Origin: Pseudomonas defluvii
GTDB lineage: Bacteria; Pseudomonadota; Gammaproteobacteria; Pseudomonadales; Pseudomonadaceae
DNA length: 64,000 nt
Assembly (NCBI RefSeq): GCF_001695625.1
Contig: NZ_MBPN01000008.1
Location: 1 to 64,000, forward strand
Reading direction: 5' to 3'
Of this stretch, positions 5,516 to 10,943 are shown piece by piece. The notes under the pieces were generated by a model. It saw only the letters and a program-made list of their open reading frames with translations, made no database searches and was not told the origin of the DNA. Every line of letters starts with the position of its first letter. The stretch's first letter is position 1. The translations under genes and the position numbers were made by a program.

Positions 5516-6043
5516 ATGAAGATTCGTCTGCCAATACTGGCGCTGGTCTTCGGGTTGGCGAGCCCGTTGGTGAATGCACAGATGTTGCAGCCAGGCCTGT
5601 GGGAGTTGACCACCAGCAACATGCAGGTTGATGGCAGGCCGCTGCCGGATATGCAGTTCATGCTCGGCCAGTTGAAAAACCTGCCGCCCGAGCAGCGTGC
5701 AATGATGGAGCAGGTGTTGGCCAAGCAAGGTGTCACTGTGGCGGGGAATGGCGTGCGCTCCTGCCTGACTCAGGAGCAGGTCAACAGCGATAACATCCCC
5801 TTGCAAGACCCCAAGTCAGGTTGTCGCCAGGAAATCACCGAGCGCAACGGCAATGTCTGGAAATTCCGTTTTAGCTGCCCCAAAGCCCAAGGTGCCGGGC
5901 AGGCTCAGTTCCTCAGTGACCGTGAGTTCCTGACCAAGGTCAACGGCACCTTCAACGCTTCGGGAACGCAGCAACAGGGCAGCATGGAAACCCGTGCGGT
6001 CTGGCTCGGCAGCAACTGCGGCACCGTTAAGCCACGCACCTAG
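5516..6043 (+). CDS. DUF3617 family secreted protein
   Basis: Periplasmic protein of unknown function. The 175 aa begin with a clear signal peptide (MKIRLPILALVFGLASPLVNA, likely cut before Gln22), followed by the PGLWELT motif typical of DUF3617 near residue 26-32. There are three cysteines in the mature part: the first in RSCLT, the second in SGCRQ and a third in RFSCPK; a fourth lies near the end (SNCG), so two disulfides are possible. GAGGAG-like ribosome site precedes the ATG. Its stop overlaps that of the convergent carbonic anhydrase gene by 4 bases. It is read away from the Zur-controlled genes, and I see no link to zinc. Confidence 0.8.
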   Translation: MKIRLPILALVFGLASPLVNAQMLQPGLWELTTSNMQVDGRPLPDMQFMLGQLKNLPPEQRAMMEQVLAKQGVTVAGNGVRSCLTQEQVNSDNIPLQDPKSGCRQEITERNGNVWKFRFSCPKAQGAGQAQFLSDREFLTKVNGTFNASGTQQQGSMETRAVWLGSNCGTVKPRT

Positions 6044-6600
6044 AACTCGTTCTGCAGCGCCTTGTAGCCCCGCACCAGGTCAACGTTGGTGCGGGCTACG
6101 TCTTCGGAGAATTCCGAGGCGCTGATGCTCACAGGAGGAAACTGTGAGAGATCCGTGCTGGCACCCATTCGCGTTGTTGAGGGCACATAAAATTGCGCCG
6201 GCAGGTTGCAGCCATCGACCACCGAGTTGTGCCGTACCACGCTGCCGTCGCCGACGGTGCAGTTGAACAGTACGCTGTTGAAGCCGATGAACACCCGATT
6301 GCCAACGGTGCAGGGGCCATGGACGATGGAGCGGTGAGCAATCGAGGTGAACTCGCCAATGGTCACCGCGGCCCCTGACTTTGAGTGGATCACCACACCA
6401 TCCTGAATGTTGGAGTTGGCGCCAATAGTGATGGGCTCCATCGCGCCGTTGCTGTCCACTTCATCAGCCCGAATGACCGCATAGGGCCCAACGAACACAT
6501 TGTCGGCGATGATCACCTTGCCGCAGATGATTGCCGTTTTATCGACATAAGCGGATTCGGCGATCACCGGTAGATCACCGCTGGGGTTCTTGCGAATCAT
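6040..6600 (-). CDS. Gamma-class carbonic anhydrase-like protein (Zur regulon)
   Basis: Left-handed beta-helix protein with repeated hexapeptides. Residues corresponding to the Cam metal site are present: Arg44, Asp46, Gln66, and three candidate metal ligands His72, His89 and His94 (HRSIVH, five apart). It would catalyse hydration of CO2 to bicarbonate. It lies 24 bases downstream of folE2, in the same direction, with ribosome site GGGAGAG, so the two are very likely one transcript behind the Zur box at 7541. In P. aeruginosa a gamma-carbonic anhydrase next to folE2 is part of the zinc-starvation response and is thought to replace zinc-dependent beta enzymes. Which metal it uses cannot be read from sequence. 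Confidence 0.85.
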   Translation of the reverse strand: MIRKNPSGDLPVIAESAYVDKTAIICGKVIIADNVFVGPYAVIRADEVDSNGAMEPITIGANSNIQDGVVIHSKSGAAVTIGEFTSIAHRSIVHGPCTVGNRVFIGFNSVLFNCTVGDGSVVRHNSVVDGCNLPAQFYVPSTTRMGASTDLSQFPPVSISASEFSEDVARTNVDLVRGYKALQNEF

Positions 6601-6624: not shown

Positions 6625-7512
6625 TTACCACTGCCACTGGCTGCGGGCGACTGCATCGTGAGCATGCAAGCTCTCGGCATGTTCAACCTGCAGGCTGAAC
6701 CCGTCGATCCAGGCATGGCGCCTTAAGGCCAGGTGTAAACGGCGCACGGCATCTTCGCAGAACATCAGGTTCTGACCGTTGGCCAGTGCGAAAGCTTGCT
6801 CATCGGCGCGTTTCACTGCGGTCTGCACCGCCGTACCCAGTGCCCCTTCGGCATGATCAATCAGTGCGACGATGGGAAACACACTAACGTCTTGCGTTAA
6901 GCGTACCTGCAACGTTGCCAGGCTACGTTGGCTATGGGGCGTGGCAACGATGCCCGCGGCACTGCCTAGCCAGGAGAGCAGCGCATCATGGCTGAGCGGT
7001 CGGTTAGCGAAATCGGCGAGAAATTGCTGTTGAATCAGTTGCCTTGCGAGTGCTGCGGAACAGGGGCAGGTTGAGGAATAGGTCACGTGCACATTTAGTT
7101 CCACGTGGAACACTTCTTGTTCTAGGCGTGCAGTCAGCACCACGGGATAGGCCTTCCAGCCTGACAGCGGGCTGACCAATGCTGGCTGTTTCAGCATGAC
7201 TTCAAATTGCAGGCGCAGGTAAGCGCTGTCAGAAAGACCGCAGTGGCTTTCCAGAAAGTGTTCAAGCACCTGATGAATCAGTGCTGGGCAAAGTTCTTTT
7301 TGTTCCAGTGCTTCCAGTGCCAGGTACAAGCGCGACATGTGTATCCCGCGTGATTCGCCGTTATCCAGGCTGACGCCGGCATCGGCACTGGCGCGCAGCC
7401 GTTGAGCGTTGAACGACACCGGCAAGGCAATGCCGCACATGCCCACCCAGTTCAGTGGTAGTGGCTGGTGTAGTGCCTGAGTGGCAATGTCGGGAAGAGG
7501 CAGGGCAGTCAT
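6625..7512 (-). CDS. folE2: GTP cyclohydrolase FolE2 (zinc-independent type)
   Basis: Type IB GTP cyclohydrolase that opens GTP to 7,8-dihydroneopterin triphosphate, the first step of folate synthesis. It stands in for zinc-dependent FolE when zinc is scarce. The 295 aa carry the family motifs KG/RGIHMSR (here RGIHMSRLY, residues 56-63) and STCPCS with Cys149 and Cys151; the first is the probable catalytic metal ligand. The start codon lies 29 bases downstream of a near-perfect Zur box (7541-7557), so the operator covers the promoter. The ribosome site is weak. First gene of the folE2 - gamma-carbonic anhydrase operon. Confidence 0.93.
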   Translation of the reverse strand: MTALPLPDIATQALHQPLPLNWVGMCGIALPVSFNAQRLRASADAGVSLDNGESRGIHMSRLYLALEALEQKELCPALIHQVLEHFLESHCGLSDSAYLRLQFEVMLKQPALVSPLSGWKAYPVVLTARLEQEVFHVELNVHVTYSSTCPCSAALARQLIQQQFLADFANRPLSHDALLSWLGSAAGIVATPHSQRSLATLQVRLTQDVSVFPIVALIDHAEGALGTAVQTAVKRADEQAFALANGQNLMFCEDAVRRLHLALRRHAWIDGFSLQVEHAESLHAHDAVARSQWQW

Positions 7513-7540: not shown

Positions 7541-7557
7541 TTGTTATATTATAACAA
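7541..7557. promoter_or_regulatory. Zur box upstream of folE2
   Basis: TTGTTATATTATAACAA is a 17-base inverted repeat with one central base, matching the gammaproteobacterial Zur operator core GTTATANTATAAC. It lies 29 bases upstream of the folE2 start. Zur with bound zinc would repress; zinc starvation would release folE2 and the carbonic anhydrase. Confidence 0.88.
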
Positions 7558-7583: not shown

Positions 7584-7967
7584 TTACTGGCAACCGCTTA
7601 CTCGACTGCAGCGCACGCCAAAGCGCTGTCCGTTGGAACTGGATACGCGGTTGATCGTGGTCCAACCGACGCGACGGCTGTAGCCGACCCAGGCTTCACC
7701 GTCACTGGCCAGCCCGGTGAAGAAGGTCAGTTGACCGTAGCGGTCGCTGGTTTGTGCCCAGCGACGTTTGCCCTCTATCTCGTACCCGCGCAAAAACACG
7801 GTGCTGCCTTTGGTTTGCACACTGTAGTAATTGCCCTCGAGATCCTTGCAGGCCAGCAGGTTTGCGCTGCGCGTGCAGTGCGCCAGCGTGTCGCTGGGTA
7901 GTGCCTGCGCGAGGGCGTGCGGGGCAAGTGCAGCGAGGCAAACAAGCCAAGCCCACGGTTGATTCAT
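7584..7967 (-). CDS. Small secreted cysteine-containing protein of the zinc cluster
   Basis: Uncharacterised 127-aa protein. A TTG codon precedes the ATG, but the ATG at 7967 has the ribosome site GAGGAAG at proper spacing, so I start there. A signal peptide (about 1-21, ending ALA before QALPS) leads to a mature domain of about 105 residues with four cysteines: two near the start (HCTRS, LACKD) and two at the end (VRCSR, SGCQ). This suggests two disulfides in a periplasmic or outer-surface beta-rich protein. There is no His-rich metal-binding tail. Its start is 63 bases from the second Zur box, shared divergently with the COG0523 gene, so it is probably induced by zinc starvation. Function unknown. 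Confidence 0.75.
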   Translation of the reverse strand: MNQPWAWLVCLAALAPHALAQALPSDTLAHCTRSANLLACKDLEGNYYSVQTKGSTVFLRGYEIEGKRRWAQTSDRYGQLTFFTGLASDGEAWVGYSRRVGWTTINRVSSSNGQRFGVRCSRVSGCQ

Positions 7968-8029
7968 CAAGACTTCCTCGAGGTGGTTAGCGGTCGTGCG
8001 CTTGCGAAGGTGCTTGGAATAAGTGCGCC

Positions 8030-8042
8030 GTTATAATATAAC
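8030..8042. promoter_or_regulatory. Zur box in the divergent COG0523 / secreted-protein promoter region
   Basis: GTTATAATATAAC is a 13-base palindrome around a central A, the same core as the folE2 box. It lies 47 bases upstream of the COG0523 GTPase start and 63 upstream of the oppositely directed secreted-protein gene, so one operator may control both. Confidence 0.86.
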
Positions 8043-8088
8043 ATCTCGTAAAGCATCTATCGAATGCTGCCCCGATGAGGACCCCACC

Positions 8089-9297
8089 ATGCCCGACCGT
8101 CTTCCCGTTACTGTGCTCTCCGGCTTTCTCGGCGCAGGCAAGAGCACGCTGCTCAATCATGTGCTGCGCAATCGCGAAAACCTCCGGGTGGCAGTGATCG
8201 TCAACGACATGAGTGAAATCAACATCGATGCCAGTGAGGTGCAACGTAATGTCAGCTTGAACCGTGCCGAGGAGAAGTTGGTCGAGATGAGCAACGGTTG
8301 CATCTGCTGCACCTTGCGCGAAGACCTGCTCGAGGAAGTCGGGCGACTGGCTCGAGAAGGTCGGTTCGATTACTTGCTGATTGAGTCGACCGGTATTTCT
8401 GAACCACTCCCCGTGGCTGAAACCTTTACCTTCCGGGATGACCAAGGCCGCAGCCTGGCCGACCAGGCGCGGCTCGATACCATGGTCACGGTAGTCGATG
8501 GTTTGAATTTCCTGAGTGATTATCAGGCTGCGGAAAGCCTGGCGAGCCGTGGCGAAACCCTTGGCGAAGAGGATGAGCGTTCGATCAGTGATCTCTTGAT
8601 CGAGCAGGTGGAGTTCGCTGATGTGATTCTGGTCAGCAAGATCGATCTGGTGGGTAGCCACAGCCGTGACGAACTAATGGCGATCCTGCGTAGCCTTAAC
8701 GCTCACGCGCAGATTGTTCCAATGGTCATGGGACAGGTGCCGCTGGAGCGGATCCTCAACACCGGCTTGTTCGACTTCGACACGGCCGCACAGGCGCCCG
8801 GTTGGCTTCAGGAACTGCGTGGCACGCATGTGCCTGAAACGCAGGAGTATGGCATTTGCTCATGGGCCTGGCAGGCTCGGCGTCCGTTGCATCCGCAGCG
8901 CTTCTTCGACTTTATCCACAGCCCCTGGACGAATGGGCGACTGCTGCGCTCCAAGGGCTTTTTCTGGCTGGCCAGTAAACTGAGTGATGCCGGTAGCTGG
9001 TCTCAGGCAGGTGGCATGGTTCGACACGGATTCGCCGGTCGTTGGTGGCGTTTTGTGCCTCGCGAGCATTGGCCACAGGATCAGGACAGTCAGGCGGCAA
9101 TCCTCAAGCATTGGAACAGCGCGTGCGGTGATTGTCGGCAAGAACTGGTGTTCATCGGCCAGCATATTGATTTTGCCAGGCTTGAAGCTGAGCTGGCGGC
9201 CTGCTTGCTGAGTGACGCTGAAATGGCGCTAGGCGAAGACGCCTGGAGTCAGCTGCCGGACCCCTTTGGTCCGTGGTACGAAGAGGACGCTGCCTGA
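8089..9297 (+). CDS. COG0523 GTPase, ZigA/ZagA-type zinc metallochaperone
   Basis: G3E-family P-loop GTPase of the CobW/COG0523 group, whose zinc-responsive members are thought to deliver zinc to client enzymes during starvation. The 402 aa show Walker [10 protein letters not shown] (residues 12-20), the metal-binding CICC motif (71-74), the Walker B region [11 protein letters not shown] and the guanine-specificity motif as SKID (Ser instead of Asn). The C-terminal CobW domain follows. The start at 8089 has the site GATGAGG; the longer frame would run into the Zur box. It is directly behind that box and its stop overlaps the next ATG (TGATG), so translation is likely coupled to the DUF1826 gene. 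Confidence 0.9.
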
Positions 9298-10788
9298 TGT
9301 TGGCACCAACGCCTCGTTATGTTCCGCGCCAGGTACTTGGTGAATCACCTCAGGTCCTGGGTGAAGCCTTGCAGGATGGGATCAATCTGGCCGTTTGGGA
9401 GCGGCAACTGCCTGTGCATATCGCCGATTTTGCCAGCCTGTTGTTGTCATTGAACCAACCATTGGCGGAGTCGTTCACGTTGGAATTGGACGACGACGGG
9501 CAACTTCCGGCATTGCCTGCGGTGGCCAGAGGCTATGCCGACCTGACAGGCTACGATGGCTTCGTCGCCGATGTGGCCTGGCTGGTTGGTGCCTATGCCT
9601 GCCTGCTTGATGCTCGTCGGGTTGGGGTACGTCTTACGGCACTGGACAACGCCATGTGCCCGCGTTGGCATGTCGATCACGTACCCTTGCGGCTGCTCAC
9701 GACCTATGCCGGGCCCGGCAGCGAATGGCTGGAAGAGGCTGTGGATAAACGCGTCCAGCCGCTGCCGGCAGAGGTCGAGCCGGCGCGGGTTCGTCAGTTG
9801 GGCTGTGGTGCTGTCGCCTTGCTGAAGGGGGAGAAGTGGTTGGGTAATGAAGGCTGCGGGCTTATCCACAGGTCGCCAGCACTGGCCAACGGTGAGCGCC
9901 GTTTGATCCTTAGCCTTGACTGGATGGCCTGAGTCCAGCGCATAGTGTGCGATCTTCCAGGCCTGTTGATGACCATGCTGCAGAACATACCTACCCACGT
10001 GATTGCCGGGCCCTTGGGGGCCGGTAAGACCAGTCTGATTCGCCACTTGATGGCTCATCGCCCGGCCACTGAGCGCTGGGCGGTGTTGATAAACGAGTTC
10101 GGTCAGATCGGCCTGGATGCGGCGCTGCTCAGCACTGCAGATGACGGCATTGCCATGGGCGAGGTGGCTGGAGGGTGCTTGTGTTGTGTGAACGGCGCAC
10201 CGTTTCAGGTTGGCCTGGGTCGGTTGTTGCGCAAATCCAGACCAGACCGGCTGTTTATCGAACCTTCAGGGCTTGGTCACCCGGCGCAGCTGTTGGCGCA
10301 ACTGCGCCAGCCACCATGGCAGGGTGTGCTGGATGTGCAGCCCTTGGTGATGGTGCTGGATGCCCAGATGTTGGCGGGTGGCCAGCCGCTAGCGGACAGT
10401 CAGCAAGCCGCATTGGTTGAGGCAGGGTTGTTGGTGCTGAACAAAGCCGAGGCTGTGGATAGTGAAAAACGGGTGTGGATAACCTCCCGATTACCCACCG
10501 TGCCGTGCTATTGGACGGAACAAGGTCGGTTACCTCTGGATGAGCTGCTGAAGCAGTCCACCGCAATTGTGGATAAGCCGGCTGTGGATAATTCTGCGTT
10601 GCCTGACGGTACCGCACCACTCGGCGCTCTGTGGACAAGTCCATCCGAGCCGATCTGCCTGCACCATCAATCAACTGACGGCTGGAGCATTGGCTGGCGC
10701 TGGCACCCGAGTCAGTTGCTCGATGCGCAGCGTATAGAGGGGTTTCTTGCGGGGCTGGTGTGGCGCCGGGCCAAACTGGTTATCCACA
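8912..10788. repeat. Dispersed cluster of DnaA-box 9-mers in the zinc cluster
   Basis: Seven perfect copies of TTATCCACA, counting both orientations, occur at 8912-8920, 9740-9748, 9862-9870, 10474-10482, 10568-10576, 10583-10591 and 10780-10788. One-mismatch forms are at 10454 (TGTGGATAG) and 10630 (TGTGGACAA). All lie inside coding sequence. The 9-mer is the strong DnaA-binding box. Outside this region and the MocR gene I noticed almost no perfect copies in the window. Confidence 0.6.
9297..9932 (+). CDS. DUF1826 protein, possible Fe(II)/2-oxoglutarate oxygenase-like fold
   Basis: 211-aa protein of family DUF1826, function not established. The start overlaps the stop of the preceding COG0523 gene by one base. 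The C-terminal half contains CPRWHVDHVP (His125-x-Asp127), then TTYAGPGSEWL, and then LIHRSPALANGERR with His191 and Arg201/Arg202. An HxD pair, a distal His about 65 residues later and an Arg about 10 residues after it is the metal- and 2-oxoglutarate-binding pattern of double-stranded beta-helix oxygenases. That is my inference from motif spacing; a metal-binding but non-oxygenase role is also possible. No signal peptide, so probably cytoplasmic. The gene sits between two COG0523 GTPases in a Zur-controlled transcript. Confidence 0.8.
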   Translation: MLAPTPRYVPRQVLGESPQVLGEALQDGINLAVWERQLPVHIADFASLLLSLNQPLAESFTLELDDDGQLPALPAVARGYADLTGYDGFVADVAWLVGAYACLLDARRVGVRLTALDNAMCPRWHVDHVPLRLLTTYAGPGSEWLEEAVDKRVQPLPAEVEPARVRQLGCGAVALLKGEKWLGNEGCGLIHRSPALANGERRLILSLDWMA

Positions 10789-10943
10789 GCCCGGAAGGTT
10801 GGCAGTCTGCTAACGCATTGGAAGGTAAACCCCTGGTCTGGCAGTCGAGCCACTGGCGGCGTGATTCACGTATCGAACTGATCTTTGCTCAGCCCCAGGA
10901 TGCTGAAGCGCTGCAACAAGGCATGGCGGCATGCCTGTGTTGA
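9969..10943 (+). CDS. Second COG0523 (CobW-like) GTPase
   Basis: Another G3E-family GTPase of the zinc cluster, 324 aa, with Walker A GPLGAGKT (residues 14-21), CLCC metal motif (70-73) in GGCLCC, and NKAE as the guanine motif. It is shorter and more divergent than the gene at 8089, so it may serve a different client. Two ATGs (9969 and 9975) are possible; the second gives MLQNIPTHVIAG and neither has a strong ribosome site. It lies 36 bases after the DUF1826 gene in the same direction, so likely in the same Zur transcript. The coding sequence contains four perfect TTATCCACA or TGTGGATAA 9-mers plus variants (see findings). It abuts the convergent DUF3301 gene without a gap. Confidence 0.82.
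   Translation: MTMLQNIPTHVIAGPLGAGKTSLIRHLMAHRPATERWAVLINEFGQIGLDAALLSTADDGIAMGEVAGGCLCCVNGAPFQVGLGRLLRKSRPDRLFIEPSGLGHPAQLLAQLRQPPWQGVLDVQPLVMVLDAQMLAGGQPLADSQQAALVEAGLLVLNKAEAVDSEKRVWITSRLPTVPCYWTEQGRLPLDELLKQSTAIVDKPAVDNSALPDGTAPLGALWTSPSEPICLHHQSTDGWSIGWRWHPSQLLDAQRIEGFLAGLVWRRAKLVIHSPEGWQSANALEGKPLVWQSSHWRRDSRIELIFAQPQDAEALQQGMAACLC

What the first reader, a model, noticed from the sequence alone, without database searches (positions are those of the whole stretch)
9297..9932. DUF1826 protein of the zinc cluster has the metal and 2-oxoglutarate pattern of an Fe(II) dioxygenase
Seen: HVD (His125-x-Asp127) in CPRWHVDHVP, then a GPGSEWL turn, then His191 in LIHRSPA and Arg201/202 ten residues later. 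Known: Fe(II)/2OG oxygenases bind metal by HxD...H and 2OG by an Arg about 10 residues after the distal His. Inference: DUF1826 may be an oxygenase or metal-sensing cupin-like enzyme. It is placed between two COG0523 GTPases behind a Zur box, so it could be an iron enzyme used, or a zinc client protected, during zinc starvation. I know of no assigned function for the family.
Basis: partly seen in the sequence, partly recalled or inferred. Interest (0 to 1): 0.7.

Follow-up and report, generated by a model that had tools for sequence, protein, structure and literature searches.

The report
Zinc-starvation iron oxygenase family DUF1826
A protein of unknown function that bacteria switch on when zinc runs out has the predicted shape and the conserved active-site residues of an iron- and 2-oxoglutarate-dependent oxygenase, which turns an unexplained part of the zinc-starvation response into an enzyme that can be tested.

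Summary
Window 9297-9932 (+) encodes a 211-aa DUF1826 protein (PF08856), the only copy found in its genome. Its ATG overlaps the stop of zigA (zinc metallochaperone GTPase), a second COG0523 GTPase follows, and a Zur-like palindrome ends 45 bases before zigA. In 172 distinct family sequences that span the site, His125, Asp127 and His191 are invariant and Arg202 is kept in 168; Arg201 is not conserved. AlphaFold2 models of the window protein and of a 23%-identical relative are confident (pLDDT 94, 92). The 50 listed matches in each of four PDB lists are Fe(II)/2OG-superfamily oxygenases (a few classed so from recall). Alignment ends place Arg202 on the 2OG-binding arginines of PHD2 and Trichoplax PHD. 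Sequence profiles show no link. A Zur-like box lies at 39 of 59 DUF1826 operons (3 expected). Published work shows zinc/Zur control (PA5534; FTN_1758) and, in the passages seen, no function. Best reading: a new 2OG-oxygenase family in the zinc-starvation response. Metal, activity and substrate are untested.

The parts
8029..8043 (.). Zur-like palindrome (CGTTATAATATAACA) ahead of zigA-DUF1826-COG0523
   Evidence: regulation in relatives from PMC4542158, PMC9431628, PMC5786701 (passages)
8089..9297 (+). ZigA, zinc metallochaperone GTPase (COG0523); its TGA stop overlaps the ATG of DUF1826
   Evidence: NF038288 673 bits against cut-off 600; sequence
9297..9932 (+). DUF1826 protein, 211 aa, predicted Fe(II)/2OG oxygenase
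   Evidence: PF08856 E 3.4e-62; AlphaFold2 pLDDT 94.1; fold matches
9630..9632 (+). codon of Arg112, in the strand at 108-116; Arg in 167 of 172 sequences; exchanged in the four that also lack Arg202
9657..9659 (+). codon of Cys121, invariant in 172 of 172, four residues before the proximal His
9669..9677 (+). codons of His125-Val126-Asp127, the HxD metal motif
   Evidence: 172 of 172 sequences
9690..9692 (+). codon of Arg132, invariant
   Evidence: 174 of 174 rows
9867..9869 (+). codon of His191, distal metal ligand, in HRSP
   Evidence: 173 of 173 rows with a letter there
9900..9902 (+). codon of Arg202, predicted 2OG C5-carboxylate ligand, first residue of the last strand
   Evidence: 168 of 172 sequences; strand E202-209; alignment ends
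9969..10943 (+). second COG0523 (CobW-like) GTPase, probably same operon (start could be 9945, 9969 or 9975)
   Evidence: PF02492 E 2.4e-40
7542..7556 (.). second Zur-like palindrome, ahead of divergent folE2
6625..7512 (-). FolE2 (GCHY-1), in the literature the zinc-independent GTP cyclohydrolase paralogue
   Evidence: PF02649 E 3.2e-70
6040..6600 (-). hexapeptide-repeat protein; gamma-carbonic-anhydrase role inferred from its place next to folE2, as in PA5539-PA5540
   Evidence: Hexapep E 4.5e-19

Best explanation
DUF1826 is a family of the Fe(II)/2-oxoglutarate-dependent oxygenase superfamily that belongs to the Zur regulon. Proposed working: when zinc falls, Zur leaves the box at 8029-8043 and zigA-DUF1826-COG0523 is expressed (box shown here; regulation shown in relatives by others). 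The 211-aa protein folds as a double-stranded beta-helix (predicted). It holds one Fe(II) by His125, Asp127 and His191 and the C5 carboxylate of 2OG by Arg202 (inferred from conservation and superposition). It uses O2 to decarboxylate 2OG and to hydroxylate or dealkylate a substrate (inferred from the superfamily). The substrate is unknown. I think a protein or amino-acid side chain of the zinc-allocation machinery is most likely, because the recurring neighbours that I could name are uptake, allocation and regulation genes and no recurring biosynthetic gene stood out (most single neighbours were not identified).
For: Fold: window model pLDDT 94.1; the 50 listed chains are Fe(II)/2OG-superfamily oxygenases by Foldseek (E 8e-6 to 5e-5), and so are the 50 listed entries by VIA-align (best Z 10.3, 172 aligned, rmsd 3.9). 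A model of an alphaproteobacterial member at about 23% identity (pLDDT 91.6) gives the same (best Z 11.1, 162 aligned, rmsd 3.9). Active site: HxD and distal His invariant, Arg202 in 168 of 172, Cys121 invariant. Superposition: model residue 211 pairs with PHD2 392 and with Trichoplax PHD 288, so without gaps in the last strand Arg202 falls on Arg383 and Arg279, which bind the 2OG C5 carboxylate (PMC10952196, PMC6235002, passages). In the second model the rows ending at PHD2 392 or 397 and at TaPHD 293 put its Arg174 on 383 and 279 as well. Regulation: 39 of 59 operons have a Zur-like box with at most 2 mismatches at some gene start of the operon, against 3.1 expected and a maximum of 10 in 2000 resamplings; 28 of 59 if only the first gene is counted. 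Context: ZigA in 34 of 47 DUF1826 genomes against 59 of 351 others, p 2e-14; by genus 22 of 29 against 35 of 183, p 3e-9.
Against: No sequence-level link: profile-profile scores against PF13640, PF03171 and PF10014 alignments are no better than against unrelated controls. Pfam scans of 38 members give DUF1826 in all and otherwise only weak hits to unrelated families (best VMAP-C, E 0.0027, 2 members). TM-scores on the query are low (0.33-0.54), so the kinship is distant. Model coordinates could not be read, so the geometry of the metal site is inferred from strand order and alignment ends; PHD2 rows ending at 399 would give 385, not 383, without a gap. Four of 172 sequences lack Arg202. No metal, 2OG turnover or substrate has been shown.
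Confidence: 0.8

Rival explanations
1. Oxygenase-fold protein repurposed to bind zinc (a zinc client, buffer or sensor) with the HxD...H site and Cys121, served by ZigA.
For: Strong association with zinc genes and with ZigA. Invariant Cys121 four residues before the HxD motif could add a soft ligand. PMC11761036 suggests a zinc-sparing paralogue or zinc chaperone; PMC13083405 calls PA5534 and PA5535 annotated metallochaperones with unknown functions (passages).
Against: A plain metal site does not explain the near-invariant Arg202 that superposes on the 2OG arginine, nor the invariant Arg132. 13 of 47 DUF1826 genomes have no ZigA at E 1e-60. A protein made only when zinc is scarce is an odd zinc client (inference).
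Confidence: 0.1
2. An Fe(II) oxidase or oxygenase of the same fold that does not use 2OG, like ACC oxidase or isopenicillin N synthase.
For: ACC oxidase and IPNS chains are among the Foldseek matches. Four small-genome sequences lose Arg202 and Arg112 together yet keep the metal triad, and three of their four loci have perfect Zur boxes.
Against: Arg202 is kept in 168 of 172. Position and spacing from the distal His (11 in 132, 12 in 34, 10 in 5, 9 in 1) are those of 2OG enzymes; in CarC the Arg is 12 after the distal His (PMC6097109, passages), in PHD2 9.
Confidence: 0.06
3. An adaptor or accessory protein of the COG0523 GTPases with no catalysis of its own.
For: Start codon overlaps the zigA stop in the window; 26 of 49 copies lie directly downstream of ZigA on the same strand.
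Against: Full conservation of a catalytic-type triad; 9 copies have ZigA elsewhere (one of these about 1.3 kb upstream) and 13 copies lie in genomes without it. ZigA proteins from genomes with and without DUF1826 show no marker residue (best frequency difference 0.50; 30 against 29 non-redundant sequences, 40 of the 59 negative genomes fetched).
Confidence: 0.04

Closest known systems
Prolyl hydroxylases of the PHD/PPHD type (human PHD2; Pseudomonas putida PPHD, 4j25 and 4iw3, which hydroxylates EF-Tu)
   Same: Small double-stranded beta-helix enzymes; HxD...H; Arg near the start of the last strand; Z 10.2 (146 aligned) and 10.5 (151 aligned) for 4j25.
   Different: No profile similarity to PF13640 members (that PPHD belongs to PF13640 is recalled); PHD2 has 9 residues from distal His to Arg against 11 here; DUF1826 has HRSP and an invariant Cys before HxD; Zur-boxed.
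Amino-acid hydroxylases of the IDO/BsmA type (6lnh, 3pl0; family PF10014 and function recalled)
   Same: Among the best structural matches (6lnh Z 10.3 with 172 aligned and 10.6 with 165; 3pl0 Z 9.8 with 171); similar size.
   Different: No profile similarity to PF10014 members; no zinc context known to me.
Plant-type 2OG oxygenases, ethylene-forming enzyme, ACC oxidase (PF03171 type)
   Same: Most of the top Foldseek chains; in them the distal His is often followed by Arg, as in HRSP (recalled).
   Different: Mostly about 300 aa or longer; their RxS motif (recalled) is absent from DUF1826; no profile similarity.
PA5534 (P. aeruginosa) and FTN_1758 (F. novicida)
   Same: DUF1826 members under zinc/Zur control in print (passages).
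   Different: Function not assigned in the passages read; called hypothetical or metallochaperone.

Membership tests
DUF1826 (PF08856) | Score above the curated cut-off over the whole domain | tested here: met
   210.4 bits, cut-off 22, profile 2-202 of 202
Fe(II)/2OG oxygenase superfamily | Double-stranded beta-helix fold | tested here: met
   Predicted models of two members; the listed PDB matches are superfamily members. Prediction, not a solved structure.
Fe(II)/2OG oxygenase superfamily | HxD...H metal triad, conserved | tested here: met
   172 of 172 distinct sequences that span the site; L064 (fragment) and L065 (aberrant) set aside
Fe(II)/2OG oxygenase superfamily | Arg or Lys for the 2OG C5 carboxylate near the start of the last strand | tested here: met
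   Arg202 in 168 of 172; pairs with PHD2 Arg383 and TaPHD Arg279 by alignment ends
Fe(II)/2OG oxygenase superfamily | Binds Fe(II) and 2OG; O2-dependent turnover to succinate | not testable with these tools
   Needs purified protein
PF13640, PF03171 or PF10014 | Sequence-profile similarity | tested here: not met
   hhalign probability below 1%, as for unrelated controls, with small alignments of 30, 22 and 6 sequences; no Pfam hit
Zur regulon | Zur box at the promoter | tested here: met
   Window sites; 39 of 59 family operons. Sites are by consensus, not by binding.
Zur regulon | Derepressed by zinc lack or zur loss | not testable with these tools
   Published for relatives: PA5534 listed at 57.5 in the table of PMC4542158 (table heading not seen); FTN_1758 over 30-fold in a zur mutant and with TPEN (PMC5786701) (passages)

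The most novel reading that the evidence does not exclude
DUF1826 is a zinc-gated protein hydroxylase. It is made and is active only when zinc is scarce, since Zn(II) would displace Fe(II) at its site. It modifies a COG0523 GTPase such as ZigA or another zinc-allocation protein, much as P. putida PPHD modifies the GTPase EF-Tu, and so adds an oxygen- and 2OG-dependent layer to bacterial zinc economy.
Probability: 0.12. Interest if true: 0.88.

Novelty: new member of a known kind. Interest (0 to 1): 0.68.

Why it matters
DUF1826 carries a Zur-like box in most of the loci sampled here and is one of only three genes confirmed as Zur-regulated in F. novicida, yet no function is assigned in the papers I found. 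If it is a 2OG oxygenase, the zinc-starvation response contains an iron-, oxygen- and 2OG-dependent chemical step of which I found no report, with four named residues to mutate and a standard assay to run. It would link zinc economy to iron, oxygen and central carbon status.

Tried and rejected
Sequence search of PDB chains with the protein and with a 38-member profile: nothing above chance (Mlh1 E 1.4; bvFP-Pfr21 E 0.18). Profile-profile tests against three 2OG families: no signal, so kinship rests on fold and motif. The alignments used there were small (30, 22 and 6 sequences).

Long open frames around some copies (up to 615 aa) looked like fusions with ZigA; in L005, L031 and L042 tblastn shows ZigA in another frame, so these are not fusions. 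The succinylglutamate desuccinylase link stated in PMC5786701 was not seen: no such domain among hits in 38 members scanned.

Marker residues in ZigA for partnership with DUF1826: none found, which gives no support to ZigA as a substrate.

Copies without the motif: L065 (aberrant, no HxD, no distal His) and L064 (fragment), and a copy with 3 stops in G375; taken as decayed. L064 and L065 were set aside from the 172-sequence counts. All 49 matches were fetched; 6 of 37 and 4 of 40 were not (two of these last are fragments of the 57- and 81-aa kind), so they are in no count of residues.

Literature: DUF1826 in full text, 3 papers; a search on dksA2, zigA, folE2, PA5534, zur, 20 of 436 listed; PF08856, IPR014955, FTN_1758, PA5534, PA14_73000, 8 papers, 7 listed; 2-oxoglutarate, dioxygenase, Zur, zinc starvation, 15 of 334 listed, none on this by title. 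No statement of an oxygenase function was found in the passages seen; subscription papers, preprint servers and annotation databases were not searched.

Full report
What is there. Window 9297-9932 (+) encodes a 211-aa protein that matches DUF1826, PF08856, at E 3.4e-62 over nearly the whole profile. It is the only match in the 5.65-Mb genome held. The ATG overlaps the TGA of the gene before it (TGATG), which is ZigA by the NCBIfam equivalog model (673 bits, cut-off 600). A second COG0523 GTPase starts 12 to 42 bases after the stop, by the start codon taken. FolE2 and a hexapeptide protein are read away on the other strand. Two Zur-like palindromes lie at 7542-7556 and 8029-8043; they are the only exact sites of the form GTTATNNTATAAC in the genome. 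The closest of the 80 named loci kept (of 591 confirmed) is from Pseudomonas laurentiana (91% identity).

The motif. In a first set of 67 rows the triad was complete wherever a row had letters. In the final set of 174 distinct rows, the window's own included (217 hits before identical cores were merged), two rows, L064 and L065, are a fragment and an aberrant copy. In the other 172, His125, Asp127, His191, Cys121 and Arg132 are invariant, and Arg202 is present in 168. Not all 172 are full length, but all span the site. In 80 rows chosen to be under 70% identical the same positions stand out. Identity to the window protein goes down to 18%, so this is strong selection. Arg201 is not conserved (Arg in 108 of 174). 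The distance from His191 to column 202 is 11 in 132 rows, 12 in 34, 10 in 5 and 9 in 1.

An instructive exception. Four copies from alphaproteobacterial genomes of 1.4 to 2.2 Mb (L257, L275, L276, L277) have Ser at column 202, Cys or Trp at column 112, and Arg at column 206. That they are marine is my guess from genome size. L237 has His at 112 and Arg at 206 as well, with Arg202 kept. Columns 112 and 202-206 lie on the strands at 108-116 and 202-209 of the model, which are the first and last strands of the core and neighbours in the known fold (recalled). This looks like a rearranged anion site rather than a lost enzyme: the metal triad is kept, and three of the four loci (L274, the larger stretch around L257, L275 and L277) have a perfect Zur box, while L276 has 4 mismatches.

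The fold. AlphaFold2 with 38 sequences gives pLDDT 94.1 and pTM 0.90. Strands of the core run at 108-116, 131-138, 143-145, 165-167, 173-177, 190-192 and 202-209, with His125 on a two-residue strand or bridge, His191 inside its strand and Arg202 as the first residue of the last strand. Foldseek against the PDB lists 50 chains (219 reach E 0.001), all from the Fe(II)/2OG superfamily, ACC oxidase and IPNS included. VIA-align lists 50 entries of the same kind, with Z up to 10.3 over 172 residues. A few titles (6lnh, 3pl0) do not name the reaction and are classed from recall. The viral library also returns 2OG oxygenases among the named hits, together with uncharacterised proteins and some names that do not fit, such as endonuclease V. 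A second model, of an alphaproteobacterial member at about 23% identity with 17 sequences (pLDDT 91.6), gives the same picture (8jms and 8xht classed from recall). Query TM-scores are 0.33 to 0.54, so this is a distant family.

Position of the arginine. Aligned ranges end at model 211 and PHD2 392, and at model 211 and Trichoplax PHD 288. If the last ten residues have no gap, Arg202 falls on PHD2 Arg383 and TaPHD Arg279. Both are reported to hold the 2OG C5 carboxylate (PMC10952196 and PMC6235002, passages). For the second model, rows that end at 183 against PHD2 392 or at 188 against 397, and at 188 against TaPHD 293, put its Arg174 on 383 and 279; rows that end at 188 against 399 would give 385 without a gap. 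In CarC the corresponding Arg is 12 residues after the distal His (PMC6097109, passages). HXD...H is the triad of most 2OG oxygenases (PMC7864055, passages).

What sequence methods say. No link: hmmscan of 38 members gives DUF1826 in all and otherwise only weak hits to unrelated families (best VMAP-C E 0.0027 in 2 members), no PDB chain is close, and hhalign values against PF13640, PF03171 and PF10014 alignments equal those against unrelated controls. This may be why the family has stayed unassigned.

Zinc context over the family. DUF1826 is found in 47 of 398 Pseudomonadota genomes, 37 of 99 of the window's family and 38 of 289 of the class of G220, an alphaproteobacterium by my reading. ZigA-type proteins (E 1e-60) are in 93 of 398, and 34 genomes have both (Fisher p 2e-14, by genus 3e-9; genomes are related, so these are guides). 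Of 49 copies, 26 lie directly after ZigA on the same strand, 1 lies on its other side, 9 have ZigA elsewhere (one of them about 1.3 kb upstream) and 13 lie in genomes without it. In 60 larger loci (59 with an intact DUF1826 frame) the recurring neighbours are COG0523 GTPases (29 loci), ABC ATPases of several kinds (21), FtsX-type permeases (10), ZrgA, TonB receptors and FUR-family regulators (7 each), MerC, DUF3299, ZnuA and ZnuB (6 each) (representatives of these clusters named by Pfam). Common unrelated types also recur: a dehydrogenase-like cluster and a LysR-like cluster, 6 loci each, named by eye. Most neighbours were not identified.

Zur boxes over the family. In 59 loci with a DUF1826 gene, 39 have a Zur-like palindrome with at most 2 mismatches near a gene start of the operon (350 bases before to 150 after, as starts were taken at the longest frame); 28 do if only the first gene counts. 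With the same number of windows drawn from the pooled other genes of these loci the mean is 3.1 and the maximum 10 in 2000 draws; single background windows reach it in 13 of 506. Eleven loci have 4 or more mismatches, among them L149, a member of the window's own family of bacteria. Some background windows are probably zinc genes themselves, which would make the test conservative.

What is in print. PA5534 is a DUF1826 protein marked as Zur regulon (PMC9431628) and listed at 57.5 in a table of PMC4542158. In zinc-depleted cells its protein is enriched, 3.5 with p 0.42 by one method and 4.3 with p 0.056 by the other (PMC11761036). In F. novicida FTN_1758 is one of three confirmed Zur-regulated genes, with a COG0523 gene and zupT, and is induced more than 30-fold without zinc (PMC5786701). 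PMC2770081 names DUF1826 in a figure legend on Zur-regulated COG0523 clusters. I saw passages of these papers, not whole texts. None of the passages gives a function.

Mechanism. Shown here: conservation, predicted fold, promoter palindromes, gene order. Shown by others in relatives: Zur and zinc control. Inferred: Fe(II) at His125/Asp127/His191, 2OG at Arg202, O2-dependent hydroxylation. Open: substrate. The tiny F. novicida regulon, and the lack of a recurring biosynthetic neighbour, argue against a zincophore step in general, although three loci (L155, L268, L272) pair DUF1826 with SBP_bac_5-type binding proteins (cluster; Pfam hit shown for L272). A protein or amino-acid substrate is my first choice; ZigA itself is possible but finds no support in residue comparison.

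Verdict. The finding is a new family of a known superfamily in a setting where no such enzyme is known to me, and it is directly testable.

Noticed in passing
L257/L274, L275, L276, L277 (DUF1826 genes): A group from small alphaproteobacterial genomes keeps HxD...H but has exchanged Arg112 and Arg202 and gained Arg at column 206; three of four loci have perfect Zur boxes. Perhaps a different co-substrate or a moved 2OG site.
   Followed up: partly
L155, L268, L272: DUF1826 behind a Zur-like box (1 mismatch each) next to SBP_bac_5-type binding proteins (Pfam shown for L272, cluster membership for the others); these may be unrecognised zinc or zinc-metallophore importers.
   Followed up: partly
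L049, L154, L156, L159, L164, L165: A MerC-like small membrane protein lies beside or near DUF1826; it may be a zinc transporter rather than a mercury one.
   Followed up: no
window 7584-7970 (-): A 128-aa protein between folE2 and zigA, found in 6 of the 7 named Pseudomonas loci looked at (L069-L073, L075, not L074), matches no Pfam family.
   Followed up: no
L275 8834-9196 and 11688-13027; L277 4921-5283 and 6519-7852: Small families, mostly without a Pfam match and one HMA-like, shared around DUF1826 in two small genomes with a TonB receptor (L275) or an FtsX-type ABC system (L277); candidate new zinc-uptake parts.
   Followed up: no
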